A stretch of 64,000 nt of DNA from Deltaproteobacteria bacterium (GTDB lineage: Bacteria > SAR324 > JACQKK01), in the NCBI GenBank assembly GCA_029858505.1, contig JAOUEW010000001.1:558001-622000 (forward strand), read 5' to 3'. Below, piece by piece: positions 19,247 to 27,603 of the stretch. The translations under genes and the position numbers were made by a program. Each line of letters starts with the position of its first letter. Position 1 is the first letter of the stretch. The notes under the pieces were generated by a model that saw only the letters and a list, made by a program, of their open reading frames with translations, did not search any database and was not told where the DNA came from.

Positions 19247-19747
19247 TTAGCCAAACAAAGAGCCAATCAGGTCGTCCACTTGGTTTTGGCTTAATTTCTG
19301 CCAGTCATCAAACTGCAGTTCGCCCCCAAACCGACTGGCCAGATCGGTATCCAACTCATCGGCCACCTCTTGCAATTGCAGCACGTGGCGCTGCACCACC
19401 GAGGGCAAGGCCAGTTCCAGTTCCAGGGTGTATTTCATTAAAATGGAGGGCCTGCCCTGAATGTCCATCAGCCCTAGGGCTTCCCGGCGCTGCAGGGCGT
19501 TGTAGGCCAGCAGGTGGCTGTACATTTGTTCCGAGGGAACCACCCCGGTGACCAGAATGGAATAAAACGTGATGTTGTGAAGTTCTGGGTTTACCCGGAT
19601 GACCATTTGGGCTGATCCCCGGCGCCAGGTCATCAGGTCTTGGCTCACCCGGTGGGGGGAATCCACGTTGCAGGTGTTCAGGCAGTCCCAATAAATATCG
19701 CACAGCTTGTGAAAGCGGCTGGGGTCGGAGAGATAGTGACTCATCAC
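19247..19747 (-). CDS. YbjN-like / secretion-chaperone-fold protein
   Basis: 166 residues, cytoplasmic, no signal. The layout resembles YbjN/CesT-like folds: a helix with an odd WDCLNTCNVD stretch, a strand pair (AQMVIRVNPELHNITFYSIL), a helix (EQMYSHLLAYNALQR), further strands ending MKYTLELEL, and a long C-terminal helix (VLQLQEVADELDTDLASRFG). Members of this fold bind partner proteins or, for YbjN, affect stress and motility in enterobacteria; no role can be assigned here. It lies about 200 bp downstream of the RelA/SpoT homologue on the same strand and might be co-transcribed. Assignment to the fold is tentative. Confidence 0.7.
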   Translation of the reverse strand: MMSHYLSDPSRFHKLCDIYWDCLNTCNVDSPHRVSQDLMTWRRGSAQMVIRVNPELHNITFYSILVTGVVPSEQMYSHLLAYNALQRREALGLMDIQGRPSILMKYTLELELALPSVVQRHVLQLQEVADELDTDLASRFGGELQFDDWQKLSQNQVDDLIGSLFG

Positions 19748-19948: not shown

Positions 19949-22126
19949 CTAAGAGACCTTGAGCACTTCGCTGATGCTTCGCAGGCGGTGAATGATTTTC
20001 TGGTACACCCGGGTGTCCACCGGCTCGATATCGATCACCGCCGCGGCAAACCCCGGATCGCGGGGTTCAATGGTCAGGTTGCGAATGCTTACCTTCAGGC
20101 TGGCCATCACCTTGCTGATTTTGTAGATCACCCCTGGGCGGTCCCTGGCCTCCACGGTCAGGGTATAGGCGGCCTTGACCGGGGTGGATTCCCACCCCAC
20201 ATGCAGGAAGTTCTCTGGGTCGTGCTGGGCCAGGTTGGGGCAGTTTTCCCGGTGAATCATCACCTCCGATCCTTTATGCACCCCCACAATGGCGTCTCCC
20301 TCCATGGGCGAGCAGCAGCGGGCCATCACCACCAGTTGGTCTTTGCGCCCCACCTTTAGGTTTGGCGAGGAGGCCCCAAACATGCCCCCCAAATACCGAG
20401 ACAGCAGCGAGCGCTCCCAGTTTTCTTGGCGCTTTAATTTTTTAGGCTCCACCAGCCCAGACTCGGCCAAAAAGGGCCGCAGGGCCAACCGGCGGGTGCC
20501 CACTTCTTGGTAAAACTGATCCAGCCCCAGCCCCCGGGCTTTTAGGGCCAACTGAAAGGCCGGCAGGGCCAGCAGCCGCTCAGGGTTTTCTCCCAACCGG
20601 CGGACTTCCACCGGAAACAATTCCATTCCCAACTGGCGGGCCTTGGCTTGGTCTTGCAGGCGCAGGGCCCGGTGCAGGGCCATGCGGGCCCGGGTGGTGT
20701 GCACGTGGTCTAGCCAGGTTTCATCGGGCGCCACGTCCTGGGCGGTGACAATTTCCACCAGGTCGCCGTCTTTCAGGGCGTGTTCACGGGTCACCGGGTG
20801 GTCGGCAATTTGGGCCCCCAGGCACTTCAACCCCAGGTCCGAGTGAATGGCAAAGGCGAAATCAATCACCGTGGCCCCGGCGGGAAAGGTGAGCATGTCT
20901 CCCTTGGGGGTAAAGGCTTGCAGGGTTTCCATTTGGGCGTGGCGCAGCACGTCCTCCATCTTCAAATCCTGATCGCCCTCCAGCCGGTCCATCAAGTCCA
21001 GATAGTTTTGATAGTAGCGGGTCAGGTCGGCATTGTTTCCTTTCCAGTCGGCCAAAATGCCCCACTTGTCAAAATGGGCCATGGCCTGCCAGGTAATTTC
21101 CACCTTCACCGGCTTCTGGCCGATGAACACCTGGGTTTCCAGCCCCTGATAGCGGGTGGGCTTGGGGTTCGAGATGTAATCGCGGATGGCCATGGGCACG
21201 GCCCGGCACTTGGTGTGAATCGCCCCCAGGGCCGGGTAGCAGTCGGCCTGAGAGGGAACGATCACCCGAAAGCCCCCAAAGGATCCAGCGGCCGCTTCCG
21301 GCTGATAGATAAAGTCGGCCACTTGGTGTTGAACCGCCACCAGAGAAAACCCCTGGTCTTCCGCCCAGGGAAGGGCCGCCAGGGCCGTTTCTAGAATTTT
21401 CCCCATGGCGTTTACTTTTCGCCGCTCGGTTTTCACCAGCCCCCTCAGCAGGGCCAGGGTGCGTTTGAACCGGTGGGGGTACAAAAACCGGAAGGCCAGG
21501 GTGGTCAATTCTCCGGCAATCTCCATCAGCCCCAGCCGCTGGGCCATGGGCACGTACACCACCAGGGTTTCCATGCTGATCCGCCGCTGGCGGCCACGGT
21601 CCAGGGGGGCCAGGTCCCGCATGTTGTCCAGCCGGTCGAAGATTTTGACCAACAGGGTGCGGATGTCTTTCACCGAAGACGTCAGCAGCTTGCGATAGGT
21701 TTCCAAAGAGACCAGATCGGCGCTTTTGCCCTGGCGAGAGGCCTTGGTCAGCCCGTCCACCGCGTCGGCCAGCCAAGTTCCGTAAAACTGGCTGATTTCT
21801 TTTTTGGTCAGGTCCGTGTCTTCGATGATGTCGTGCAGCAGGGCAATGATGACCCCCTCCACGTCCAAGCCCGCGTCGCTGGCCAGCAGCGCCACCCGGT
21901 AGGGGTGAATGATGGCGGGCAGCCCCGACTTACGCATTTGGCCGTGGTGATAATGCTCCACATCGTGAAAGGCTTGTTCCAGCAGGGCGTGGCGGGGGGT
22001 GGTTTCTTTGGGATAGCGCTTGCGCAGGGTGTCTTTGATCCGCCGCAACTGGCCATTCACCGGACTACGCCGCTCTTCTCCCCCAACGGGAAGGGCCCCC
22101 GGTTGAGGTGGGCGGTCGTGGCTGGC
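19949..22126 (-). CDS. RelA/SpoT homologue with intact hydrolase and degenerate synthetase domain
   Basis: 725 residues from the ATG at 22126 (MASHDRPP); in-frame ATG 22189 and TTG 22204 lie in AT-rich, promoter-like sequence. Domain order: HD hydrolase (HPYRVALLAS, LLHDIIEDTD, KIFDRLDNMRDL, with the metal-site H, HD and D kept), pseudo-synthetase, TGS (FTPKGDMLTFPAGATVIDFA), helical and zinc-finger-like region (VMARCCSPMEGDAIVG), C-terminal ACT (EARDRPGVIYKISKVMA). In the synthetase region the catalytic motifs are lost: the Asp of the usual DLxAxR is Ser (SFGGFR), YQSLHT is YQGLET, EIQIRT is EITWQA and the last motif reads KWGILADW. The protein should therefore hydrolyse (p)ppGpp but not make it. 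It is longer than small alarmone hydrolases and keeps the regulatory C-terminus. Confidence 0.93.
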   Translation of the reverse strand, partial: ASHDRPPQPGALPVGGEERRSPVNGQLRRIKDTLRKRYPKETTPRHALLEQAFHDVEHYHHGQMRKSGLPAIIHPYRVALLASDAGLDVEGVIIALLHDIIEDTDLTKKEISQFYGTWLADAVDGLTKASRQGKSADLVSLETYRKLLTSSVKDIRTLLVKIFDRLDNMRDLAPLDRGRQRRISMETLVVYVPMAQRLGLMEIAGELTTLAFRFLYPHRFKRTLALLRGLVKTERRKVNAMGKILETALAALPWAEDQGFSLVAVQHQVADFIYQPEAAAGSFGGFRVIVPSQADCYPALGAIHTKCRAVPMAIRDYISNPKPTRYQGLETQVFIGQKPVKVEITWQAMAHFDKWGILADWKGNNADLTRYYQNYLDLMDRLEGDQDLKMEDVLRHAQMETLQAFTPKGDMLTFPAGATVIDFAFAIHSDLGLKCLGAQIADHPVTREHALKDGDLVEIVTAQDVAPDETWLDHVHTTRARMALHRALRLQDQAKARQLGMELFPVEVRRLGENPERLLALPAFQLALKARGLGLDQFYQEVGTRRLALRPFLAESGLVEPKKLKRQENWERSLLSRYLGGMFGASSPNLKVGRKDQLVVMARCCSPMEGDAIVGVHKGSEVMIHRENCPNLAQHDPENFLHVGWESTPVKAAYTLTVEARDRPGVIYKISKVMASLKVSIRNLTIEPRDPGFAAAVIDIEPVDTRVYQKIIHRLRSISEVLKVS

Positions 22127-22193
22127 CATCGGGGAAAATCCATAGGTTAGAGTGAACACATCTTCCAATTCTCTACCAAAATACCACATCTCA

Positions 22194-25923: not shown

Positions 25924-27603
25924 ATGCCCACATCTTTTCCAGCTCCCGACCCCACCCCGATGGATTCCTTCCAAACCCTTACCCGCTTGGCCCAACACCC
26001 CTTTGACCTGACGGCTCCTGGCGCCCTGACGGCCCAGCGGGTTTTGGACCTGCAGGCCCAGGCCTGCGGGTTTCAACTGCTGTATGGCACCCAGCGGGTG
26101 AACCAGGAAACCCTGGCGGCCCTGGCAGGCCTGGCCAAGGAAACCCAGGCGGTGGAACGAATGGCCCAGTTGATGGCTGGGGCCCGAGCGAACCGAATTG
26201 AAGGCTGGCCCAGCGAAGACCGCCAAGTGCTGCACCATGCCACCCGCGACTTGTTCTCGGACATGCCCGAACCCCCGCTGTTGACCAGGGTTCGGGAACG
26301 CCTTGCCCCGGCCGAGGCCGACGCCGCCCGGGCCGCCCGAGAGGAAGCCGTGAAACAAATGGAACACCTGAGGGTGTTTCTGGATGACGTGATGATGGGG
26401 CGGATCACCAACAACCGGGGAGAAACTTTTACCGACTTGGTGAACGTGGGCATTGGCGGGTCCGACCTGGGACCCAGGGCCGTGTACATGGCCGTGGGCC
26501 CCCACCGCCTGCGGGGCCGCCAAGTGCATTACGTCAGCAACCTCGACTCCGACGACATGTCTCGCCACCTGGCGGGGCTGAATCTTTCTCGCACGCTGGT
26601 GAACGTGGTGTCGAAAAGCGGCACCACCCTGGAGACCCTGACCAACGAAACCCTGGCCCGCCGGTTTTTCCGCGAGGCGGGGCTGGACCCGGCCCAGCAC
26701 TTTATTTGCGTGACCGGCCAGGGCAGCCCCATGGACAACCCCGCCGCCTACCGGGCCTGCTTTCACATGTTCGATTACATTGGGGGGCGCTACTCGGTTA
26801 CCTCCATGGTGGGGGGGGTCAGCCTGGGGTTTGCCATGGGCTACGCGGGGTTCGTGGAATTTCTGCGAGGGGCCCGGGCCATGGACCTGGCCTCGCTGGA
26901 GCCAGACCCGCTGAACAACCTGCCCCTGCTGGCGGCTTTGCTGGGGGTGTGGAACCGCTCGTTCTTGGGGCATGAAACCCTGGCGGTGCTGCCTTACAGC
27001 CAGGGGCTGTTGCGGTTTGTGGCTCACCTGCAGCAGCTCGACATGGAATCCAACGGCAAGGGGGTCACCCGCCTGGGGCAAGAGGCCCCCTATCCCACCG
27101 GCCCGGTGGTGTGGGGAGAACCCGGCACCAACGGCCAGCACGCCTTCTATCAGTTGCTGCACCAAAGCAAAACCGTGGTGCCCTGCGAGTTCATCGCCTT
27201 CCGGCGCTGCCAATGGAACGCCGATATCGAAGTAGAGGGCACCACCAGCCAGCAAAAAGTGTTGGCCAACGTGCTGGCCCACGCCATGGCCCTGGCCCTG
27301 GGCCAAACCCATGAAAACCCCAACAAGCGTTTCCCCGGCAACCGCCCCAGTTGGCTGATGGTTCACGACCGGCTGACCCCCTATTCTTTGGGCAGCCTGC
27401 TGGCCTTTTATGAAAACAAGGTGGCCTTTCAGGGGCTGCTGTGGAACATCAACTCTTTCGACCAGGAAGGCGTGCAGTTGGGCAAGGTGTTGGCCCAGCG
27501 GTTTCTTTCTCACTTACAAAACCCCACCGGGGCCCAGGCCAAGGCCGACCCCTTGGGGTTGGCCATGCTGCAGGCCGCTGGAATGCTAGAGGATTCAACT
27601 TAA
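25924..27603 (+). CDS. pgi: Glucose-6-phosphate isomerase
   Basis: 559 residues, full length for the large bacterial PGI class. Interconverts glucose 6-phosphate and fructose 6-phosphate in the cytoplasm. Visible signatures: VGIGGSDLGPRAV (phosphate loop), VVSKSGTTLETL, SVTSMVGGVSLGFAMGYAGF, GTNGQHAFYQLLHQ (catalytic His region), NKRFPGNRPS and GSLLAFYENKVAFQGLLWNI, ending with the Lys of EGVQLGK. Starts ATG 25924; a second in-frame ATG at 25960 is possible. It lies 38 bp after the Hpt gene on the same strand, so the three may share transcripts, with no obvious functional link. Confidence 0.97.
   Translation: MPTSFPAPDPTPMDSFQTLTRLAQHPFDLTAPGALTAQRVLDLQAQACGFQLLYGTQRVNQETLAALAGLAKETQAVERMAQLMAGARANRIEGWPSEDRQVLHHATRDLFSDMPEPPLLTRVRERLAPAEADAARAAREEAVKQMEHLRVFLDDVMMGRITNNRGETFTDLVNVGIGGSDLGPRAVYMAVGPHRLRGRQVHYVSNLDSDDMSRHLAGLNLSRTLVNVVSKSGTTLETLTNETLARRFFREAGLDPAQHFICVTGQGSPMDNPAAYRACFHMFDYIGGRYSVTSMVGGVSLGFAMGYAGFVEFLRGARAMDLASLEPDPLNNLPLLAALLGVWNRSFLGHETLAVLPYSQGLLRFVAHLQQLDMESNGKGVTRLGQEAPYPTGPVVWGEPGTNGQHAFYQLLHQSKTVVPCEFIAFRRCQWNADIEVEGTTSQQKVLANVLAHAMALALGQTHENPNKRFPGNRPSWLMVHDRLTPYSLGSLLAFYENKVAFQGLLWNINSFDQEGVQLGKVLAQRFLSHLQNPTGAQAKADPLGLAMLQAAGMLEDST

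What the first reader, a model, noticed from the sequence alone, without database searches (positions are those of the whole stretch)
19949..22126. RSH protein with intact hydrolase and dismantled synthetase
HD-site ligands are all present, while four separate synthetase motifs are altered (SFGGFR, YQGLET, EITWQA, KWGILADW). TGS, zinc-finger-like and ACT regions are retained. It would be a hydrolase-only long RSH, with SpoT-like function specialised to removing (p)ppGpp. A second, active synthetase must exist elsewhere if the stringent response operates.
Basis: partly seen in the sequence, partly recalled or inferred. Interest (0 to 1): 0.5.

Follow-up and report, generated by a model that had tools for sequence, protein, structure and literature searches.

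The report
Hydrolase-only long RSH in SAR324
This gene encodes a long RelA/SpoT-type protein that, judged by its sequence, should only destroy the alarm nucleotide (p)ppGpp, while a second long protein in the same genome keeps only the site that makes it; this division of labour recurs across the SAR324 group of bacteria and seems to have arisen apart from the well-known RelA/SpoT pair.

Summary
On the minus strand, 22129-19949, lies a 726-aa long RSH with 8 of 8 HD catalytic residues and 1 of 9 synthetase residues. The predicted second synthetase exists: the same genome (SAR324 group, inferred) holds a 717-aa long RSH with 9/9 synthetase and 2/8 HD residues. Of 52 held genomes of the phylum, 43 have both, including the 15 listed at >=90% completeness and <=5% contamination; no bifunctional Rel was seen among 95 proteins read. 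Window-type: HD 8/8 in 48 of 48, synthetase 0-2 of 9 in the 47 that hold that domain. Partner: synthetase 8-9 of 9 in 47 of 47; R44 and N148 of the HD site lost in 47 of 47, but 4-5 of 8 HD residues remain in seven relatives of the window's family. Domain constraint crosses over between the two. The function resembles Acinetobacter SpoT[Hs] plus RelA. Trees favour an origin outside the beta/gamma RelA/SpoT pair but do not settle it. A similar split was seen in 15 of 60 Pseudomonadota genomes (8 pairs read), probably Magnetococcia. No activity was measured.

The parts
19949..22129 (-). long RSH gene, 726 codons plus stop; HD site intact, synthetase site lost (Hs)
   Evidence: 46 of 52 genomes of the phylum carry it
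21527..21958 (-). HD hydrolase domain with 8 of 8 catalytic residues (R66, H75, H99, D100, E103, D104, D165, N169)
   Evidence: Pfam HD_4 7e-28; residue columns
21041..21481 (-). pseudo-synthetase domain (fold predicted to be kept, 8 of 9 catalytic residues lost); the Pfam match covers 21041-21274, the wider limit is from the model
   Evidence: Pfam RelA_SpoT partial match; residue columns; model and Foldseek
21266..21283 (-). SFGGFR: catalytic Asp replaced by Ser
21134..21151 (-). YQGLET: canonical YQSLHT changed, His replaced by Glu
21083..21100 (-). EITWQA: canonical EVQIRT region; catalytic Gln and Arg lost here and the Glu lost two residues before it
21044..21067 (-). KWGILADW: canonical AExGxAAHW region changed
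20744..20917 (-). TGS domain
   Evidence: Pfam 5e-17; conserved TGS His kept
20240..20317 (-). zinc-finger-like CC...H...C motif
19955..20167 (-). ACT domain
   Evidence: Pfam ACT_4 1.5e-10

Best explanation
The protein is a dedicated (p)ppGpp hydrolase of the long-RSH architecture. The HD domain removes the 3'-pyrophosphate (inferred from full conservation of the site). The synthetase domain no longer catalyses (inferred from loss of its catalytic residues) and is kept as a structural or regulatory partner of the HD domain, as reported for Acinetobacter baumannii SpoT. Synthesis is done by a second long RSH (717 aa) in the same genome, whose HD site is broken, so that the alarmone level is set by two separate proteins (shown at sequence level, inferred for activity). 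The split is old in the sampled SAR324 group and is best explained by duplication of a bifunctional Rel, or gain of a second copy, followed by reciprocal loss, independently of the RelA/SpoT pair of Beta- and Gammaproteobacteria (inferred; trees favour it but do not settle it).
For: HD 8/8 in 48 of 48 window-type proteins and SYNTH 0-2 of 9 in 47 of 47 that hold the domain; the catalytic Asp in 0 of 47. Partners: SYNTH 9/9 in 41 and 8/9 in 6 of 47; HD R44 and N148 in 0 of 47. Constraint crosses over: HD identity higher in the window type for 842 of 861 genome pairs, SYNTH identity higher in the window type for only 38 of 861. Only two RelA_SpoT domains and two HD_4 domains in the window's genome, in the same two proteins. 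Both proteins in 43 of 52 genomes. Classifier behaves on controls: E. coli SpoT 8/8 and 9/9, E. coli RelA 0/8 and 9/9. Predicted fold matches solved Rel N-terminal fragments, TM 0.66-0.81 by target length, and the SpoT fragment 7qps, 0.60-0.66. Partner has the R-x-K-D type (KD in 46 of 47), not the E-x-D-D of RelA (11 of 11). All synthetase-only groups as one clade rejected, p 0.00015.
Against: No activity data. The partner's HD site is not equally broken everywhere: in seven of nine partners of the window's family 4-5 of 8 residues remain, and in G002, G004, G005, G006 and G008 the two His and two Asp that I recall as Mn ligands are all present, so residual hydrolysis there is not excluded; in the window's own genome the partner keeps 2 of 8. 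HD counts are lower bounds for 11 of 47 partners that have a gap in an HD column, one of them (G003) cut by its contig end. Deep tree nodes are weak: partner plus RelA as one clade gave p 0.388 on SYNTH+TGS, 0.0275 on SYNTH to zinc finger, 0.086 with Myxococcota protein L211 joined; window type plus gamma SpoT gave 0.0388, or 0.229 with L147 joined, and 0.0096 with L147 on the C-terminal part. Neither paralogue always came out as one clade, although one clade was not rejected (p 0.615, 0.667, 0.179). The two paralogues did not come out as sisters; W+S was rejected with L147 left out (p 0.026), not with it (0.397). Of three linker lengths tied to hydrolase specialisation in the SpoT structure paper, only the Core is shorter here.
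Confidence: 0.82

Rival explanations
1. The pair is a true RelA/SpoT pair, by common descent or transfer from Beta/Gammaproteobacteria, with SpoT further reduced as in Moraxellaceae.
For: Same functional partition; some AU tests do not reject grouping with RelA (p 0.388; 0.086) or SpoT (p 0.229).
Against: Rejected at p 0.0275 and 0.0096 with longer or other columns; partner lacks the RelA E-x-D-D type; far below the SpoT and RelA equivalog cut-offs (325 against 947 and 210 against 728 bits for the window protein; 491 and 426 for the partner).
Confidence: 0.12
2. The HD domain has shifted to another nucleotide, for example (p)ppApp or a phosphorylated cofactor, and (p)ppGpp is removed by something else.
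For: Some HD hydrolases act on other substrates (title of PMC7644958 in the listing; (p)ppApp hydrolase 7smg; MESH1-PAPS complex 9chy).
Against: No other HD_4 protein in the genome besides the two long RSHs; the site is 8/8 in 48 of 48. Other hydrolase families were not searched.
Confidence: 0.07
3. The altered synthetase still works with a different set of residues.
For: Part of the G-loop is conserved, e.g. D317 in 47 of 48, and position 325 (Asn in 42 of 48, but Thr in the window protein).
Against: Catalytic Asp absent in 47 of 47, replaced by V19, I17, A7, L2, S1, P1; the Glu kept in 2 of 47.
Confidence: 0.03
4. One lineage of hydrolase-only RSH is shared by SAR324, the Magnetococcia-like genomes and some Myxococcota, spread by transfer rather than arisen repeatedly.
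For: The HD+TGS tree joins them (99) and the union of the SAR324 and Magnetococcia-like types is not rejected (p 0.502).
Against: The program warned that long branches meet; their synthetase partners as one clade are rejected (p 0.0095).
Confidence: 0.2

Closest known systems
SpoT[Hs] of Moraxellaceae (Acinetobacter baumannii SpoT, PDB 7qpr; PMC9974481, passages read)
   Same: Full-length long RSH with working HD and dead synthetase, beside a synthetase-only long RSH; the catalytic Asp is Ser in both that protein and this window protein.
   Different: Another bacterial group, not inside gamma SpoT in the trees. Ser at that place is found in only 1 of 47 SAR324 proteins. Two of three linker changes are absent. 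Sister families lack the zinc finger and ACT.
Beta/Gammaproteobacterial RelA[hS] + SpoT[HS]
   Same: Two long RSHs, one with a dead HD domain.
   Different: SpoT there is largely bifunctional (PMC3153485, passages); RelA carries E-x-D-D, the partner here R-x-K-D.
RshD and other second-copy long RSHs (PMC3153485, passages read)
   Same: A second long RSH beside another long RSH, in former Deltaproteobacteria and Magnetococcus.
   Different: Listed there as [HS]; the proteins here each lack one site. SAR324 is not named in the passages I saw.
Bifunctional Rel[HS]
   Same: Domain order HD, SYNTH, TGS, helical, zinc finger, ACT.
   Different: Both sites intact in one protein.

Membership tests
Long RSH (RelA/SpoT homologue) | HD, SYNTH, TGS and ACT domains in one chain | tested here: met
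   Pfam, all four above cut-off
Long RSH (RelA/SpoT homologue) | NCBIfam TIGR00691 cut-off of 499.2 bits | tested here: not met
   412.9 bits for the window protein over nearly its full length; partner 587. This is NCBI's naming threshold, not part of the definition of the architecture.
Hydrolase-only long RSH [Hs] (functional class) | all HD catalytic residues present | tested here: met
   8 of 8
Hydrolase-only long RSH [Hs] (functional class) | synthetase catalytic residues lost | tested here: met
   1 of 9 kept; Asp, Glu, Gln, Arg lost
Hydrolase-only long RSH [Hs] (functional class) | measured hydrolysis without synthesis | not testable with these tools
   needs an assay
SpoT (Beta/Gammaproteobacteria) | groups with gamma SpoT in trees | tested here: inconclusive
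   not grouped; AU p 0.0388, 0.229, 0.0096
SpoT (Beta/Gammaproteobacteria) | NCBIfam SpoT equivalog cut-off of 947 bits | tested here: not met
   325 bits
RelA, for the partner protein | E-x-D-D in place of R-x-K-D (recalled as a RelA mark; columns checked here) | tested here: not met
   KD in 46 of 47 partners, DD in 11 of 11 RelA rows
RelA, for the partner protein | groups with RelA in trees | tested here: inconclusive
   not grouped; AU p 0.388, 0.0275, 0.0864

The most novel reading that the evidence does not exclude
Complete separation of (p)ppGpp synthesis and hydrolysis into two long RSHs is not a peculiarity of Moraxellaceae but a recurrent outcome, fixed in the SAR324 group, in what is probably the class Magnetococcia and in single Myxococcota, with at least two and probably three origins of the synthetase-only partner. 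In SAR324 the dead synthetase domain has a rebuilt, conserved G-loop (D317, S320, N321, P322, G329) and may act as a nucleotide-sensing switch for the hydrolase.
Probability: 0.35. Interest if true: 0.68.

Novelty: new variant of a known kind. Interest (0 to 1): 0.52.

Why it matters
In the passages I read of the 2011 survey (PMC3153485), complete partition is described for Moraxellaceae, and Rel[HS] is the typical form in most other groups. If the partition is old in the SAR324 group, it gives natural pairs, apart from RelA/SpoT, with which to test why bacteria separate the two activities and what a dead synthetase domain does for a hydrolase. The families in which the hydrolase protein has also lost zinc finger and ACT, or the synthetase has lost ACT, show which regulatory domains each activity can do without.

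Tried and rejected
Annotation artefact or misaligned motifs: rejected, since the pattern recurs in relatives and the predicted fold aligns with solved Rel and SpoT N-terminal fragments. Decaying gene: rejected, the frame is open and the HD domain is the best conserved part among the domains compared. Other alarmone enzymes in the genome: no further RelA_SpoT or HD_4 match. Linker-length model of hydrolase specialisation: only the Core fits (43, once 44, against 50 residues in the window's family). Plasmid search for named relatives: 82 records, none at 60% identity or more. 16S to name genomes: no match in 8 of 9 genomes; for the one hit, G088, the best-ranked records are Alphaproteobacteria at about 87% over 39% of the query. 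Sphingomonadales and Rhodobacterales as carriers of the second split pair: one plasmid-borne protein of each was an ordinary [HS], which does not exclude them. Literature: SAR324 with ppGpp gave 0 papers, with 'stringent response' 1, on drinking water, with 'SpoT' 27, of which I saw 8 in the listing, none by title or abstract start about the protein.

Rows left out: the trees used at most 16 SAR324 genomes per paralogue out of 48 and 47 extracted proteins. Long rows (L041, L113, L115, L212, L213, the G041 proteins) and the Magnetococcia-like hydrolases were left out of some trees, and near-duplicate rows; the first trees hold the long rows. Three AU tests did not finish and are not used: RelA+AlphaS and SARS+AlphaS (both asked again on other columns) and AlphaH+alpha Rel (not repeated). 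Groups were partly chosen after the first trees and no correction for the number of tests was made. In the tree calls the Magnetococcia-like rows are labelled 'Alpha'.

Full report
OBSERVATION. The minus strand of 22129-19949 encodes a 726-aa protein. Pfam finds HD_4, a weak partial RelA_SpoT domain, TGS and ACT, all above cut-off. I aligned it with E. coli SpoT and RelA and with relatives and read residues at columns known to me as catalytic from RelSeq numbering (recalled; E. coli SpoT has 8 of 8 HD and 9 of 9 SYNTH, E. coli RelA 0 of 8 and 9 of 9). The window protein has 8 of 8 HD residues and 1 of 9 SYNTH residues.

ORGANISM. The window's genome is 2.79 Mb in 14 contigs, listed as 97% complete. 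Five genomes of its family have contigs equal in length to named records that encode the same protein: G002, G005 and G007 to SAR324 cluster MAGs, G004 to a Lambdaproteobacteria MAG, G003 to a MAG titled Deltaproteobacteria. I therefore call the group SAR324; the name is inferred from these matches.

PARTNER. The genome has two RelA_SpoT domains and two HD_4 domains, in the same two proteins. The partner at G000:C1:74327-76477 (717 aa) has 9 of 9 SYNTH and 2 of 8 HD residues.

DISTRIBUTION. Of 52 held genomes of the phylum, 46 have the window type (W) and 48 the synthetase type (S; that of G035 is a 375-aa open frame, not motif-checked); 43 have both, 3 only W, 5 only S, one (54% complete) neither. 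The 15 genomes listed, in rounded figures, at 90 or more complete and 5 or less contaminated all have both. Seven of 52 also have a third RelA_SpoT match in open frames of 361-434 aa. I extracted 48 W proteins (46 genomes, the named MAG UBA11222, and a second 238-aa fragment of G044) and 47 S proteins. W: HD 8/8 in 48 of 48; SYNTH 0-2 of 9 in the 47 that hold the domain. S: SYNTH 9/9 in 41 and 8/9 in 6 of 47; HD 0-1 of 8 in 39, 2 in one (the window's), 4-5 in seven. Eleven S proteins have a gap in at least one HD column, one because its contig ends; among the 36 without gaps the counts are 0 in 19, 1 in 9, 2 in 1, 4 in 4, 5 in 3. R44 and N148 are absent in 47 of 47. The seven with 4-5 all belong to the window's family, and five of them (G002, G004, G005, G006, G008) still have the two His and two Asp that I recall as Mn ligands. 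No protein read was bifunctional by this test. In families f3 and f4 the nine main W open frames are 471-510 aa and their match ends near residue 500 or before, ahead of zinc finger and ACT; in f2 S frames are 599-702 aa (one, cut by a contig end, 498) and their match to the partner ends at or before residue 645, ahead of ACT.

CONSTRAINT. For the 42 genomes with both proteins extracted, HD identity is higher in W in 842 of 861 genome pairs (mean 0.55 against 0.33) and SYNTH identity is higher in W in only 38 of 861 (0.42 against 0.54); TGS is similar (0.52 against 0.55). The dead synthetase of W keeps 18 columns at 85% or more, so it is not drifting freely.

MECHANISM. The nearest tested protein is A. 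baumannii SpoT: hydrolase-only in vivo, with a pseudo-synthetase that the authors call regulatory and whose catalytic Asp is Ser (PMC9974481; passages by term search and section 8 read). The window protein has the same Asp-to-Ser change, but it is the only one of 47 SAR324 proteins with Ser there. I infer the same division: HD catalyses; pseudo-SYNTH, TGS and C-terminal domains hold and tune it. Of the three linker features in that paper only a shorter Core is found here, so the conformational part is not established. A model from six sequences has pLDDT 67 and pTM 0.47; by Foldseek the best matches are ribosome-bound RelA, full-length SpoT 7qpr and B. subtilis Rel with low whole-chain TM (0.36-0.45 by query), and Rel N-terminal fragments with TM 0.66-0.81 by target. 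This supports the fold of HD plus pseudo-SYNTH only.

ORIGIN. On SYNTH+TGS, S is not with RelA, which is a starred group. S carries R-x-K-D rather than RelA's E-x-D-D. AU tests: all synthetase-only proteins as one clade p 0.00015, S with the Magnetococcia-like type 0.0095, RelA with that type 0.0006; S with RelA 0.388, 0.0275 or 0.086 depending on columns and rows. W with gamma SpoT: 0.0388, 0.229, 0.0096. W and S as one clade: 0.026 without L147, 0.397 with it, 0.141 with L147 and L211, so an in-group duplication is allowed, not shown. S itself was split in some trees, with the f2 proteins beside Myxococcota protein L211 (96); one clade is not rejected (0.615, 0.179). These are quick trees, groups were partly chosen after seeing them and several tests were made, so p values near 0.03 are weak.

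OTHER CASES. In 60 Pseudomonadota genomes, 15 have a second RSH in an open frame of 623-720 aa that matches SpoT only over about its first 480 residues. Eight such pairs were read: 8 of 8 have one protein with HD 8/8 and SYNTH 0-3 of 9 and another with HD 0-1 of 8 and SYNTH 9/9. I think these are Magnetococcia, a class of Pseudomonadota: G060 is one contig of 4,719,581 bases, the size I recall for Magnetococcus marinus MC-1, and the sample seems drawn evenly over classes. That naming is inference. The 2011 survey lists Magnetococcus as Rel[HS] plus RshD[HS] (PMC3153485, outline and passages read). In the sample of 57 genomes of G053's phylum (Myxococcota by the title of L042's record) I read 34 proteins: 29 are ordinary (8/8 and 9/9); G115 has a hydrolase-type protein (L147, 8/8 and 0/9) with a partner at 4/8 and 9/9 (L211); G053 has a hydrolase-type copy (L115/L214, 8/8 and 1/9) beside L113 (7/8 and 9/9); L212 and L213 are synthetase-type (1/8 and 0/8, with 9/9) with no hydrolase-type mate found by that search. 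L211 grouped with S but with Myxococcota Rel.

NOVELTY. A hydrolase-only long RSH is a known kind. I found no report of it in SAR324, nor of this pairing there, in three searches of open-licence PMC papers; subscription papers and preprints were not searched. Hence: new variant of a known kind.

Noticed in passing
window 25924-27603 (+) and 19949-22129 (-): A gene that I recognise by eye as glucose-6-phosphate isomerase lies beside the window-type RSH in 6 of 9 distinct loci of the window's family type (G002, G004, G005, G007, G008, UBA11222), and in none of the 10 family-f2 loci tested; in the window a hybrid histidine kinase sits between them. Flanks were cut short in some loci.
   Followed up: partly
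window 19247-19747 (-): A YbjN/T3SS-type peptide-binding chaperone (TY-Chap1) gene follows the RSH; a 53% identical gene lies about 2 kb downstream of the RSH in L037.
   Followed up: partly
G013, G020, G024, G032, G045, G047, G009: Seven of 52 SAR324 genomes carry a third RelA_SpoT match in open frames of 361-434 aa, possibly a small alarmone synthetase.
   Followed up: no
L177-L190, L215, L216: Eight reciprocal hydrolase-only and synthetase-only long RSH pairs in what are probably Magnetococcia; the hydrolase member has Arg for Lys at the R-x-K-D place in 8 of 8, as 37 of 48 SAR324 ones do.
   Followed up: partly
L147, L211 (genome G115 of the Myxococcota sample): A pair resembling the SAR324 one, near it but not for L211; transfer or misbinned contigs not tested.
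   Followed up: partly
L212 (G114), L213 (G146): Synthetase-type long RSHs with broken HD sites in two genomes of the Myxococcota sample where the search with the window protein found no other RSH.
   Followed up: no
L120 (Pseudomonadota genome G065): A SpoT-like protein with HD 8/8 but 6 of 9 synthetase residues, maybe another lineage losing synthesis.
   Followed up: no
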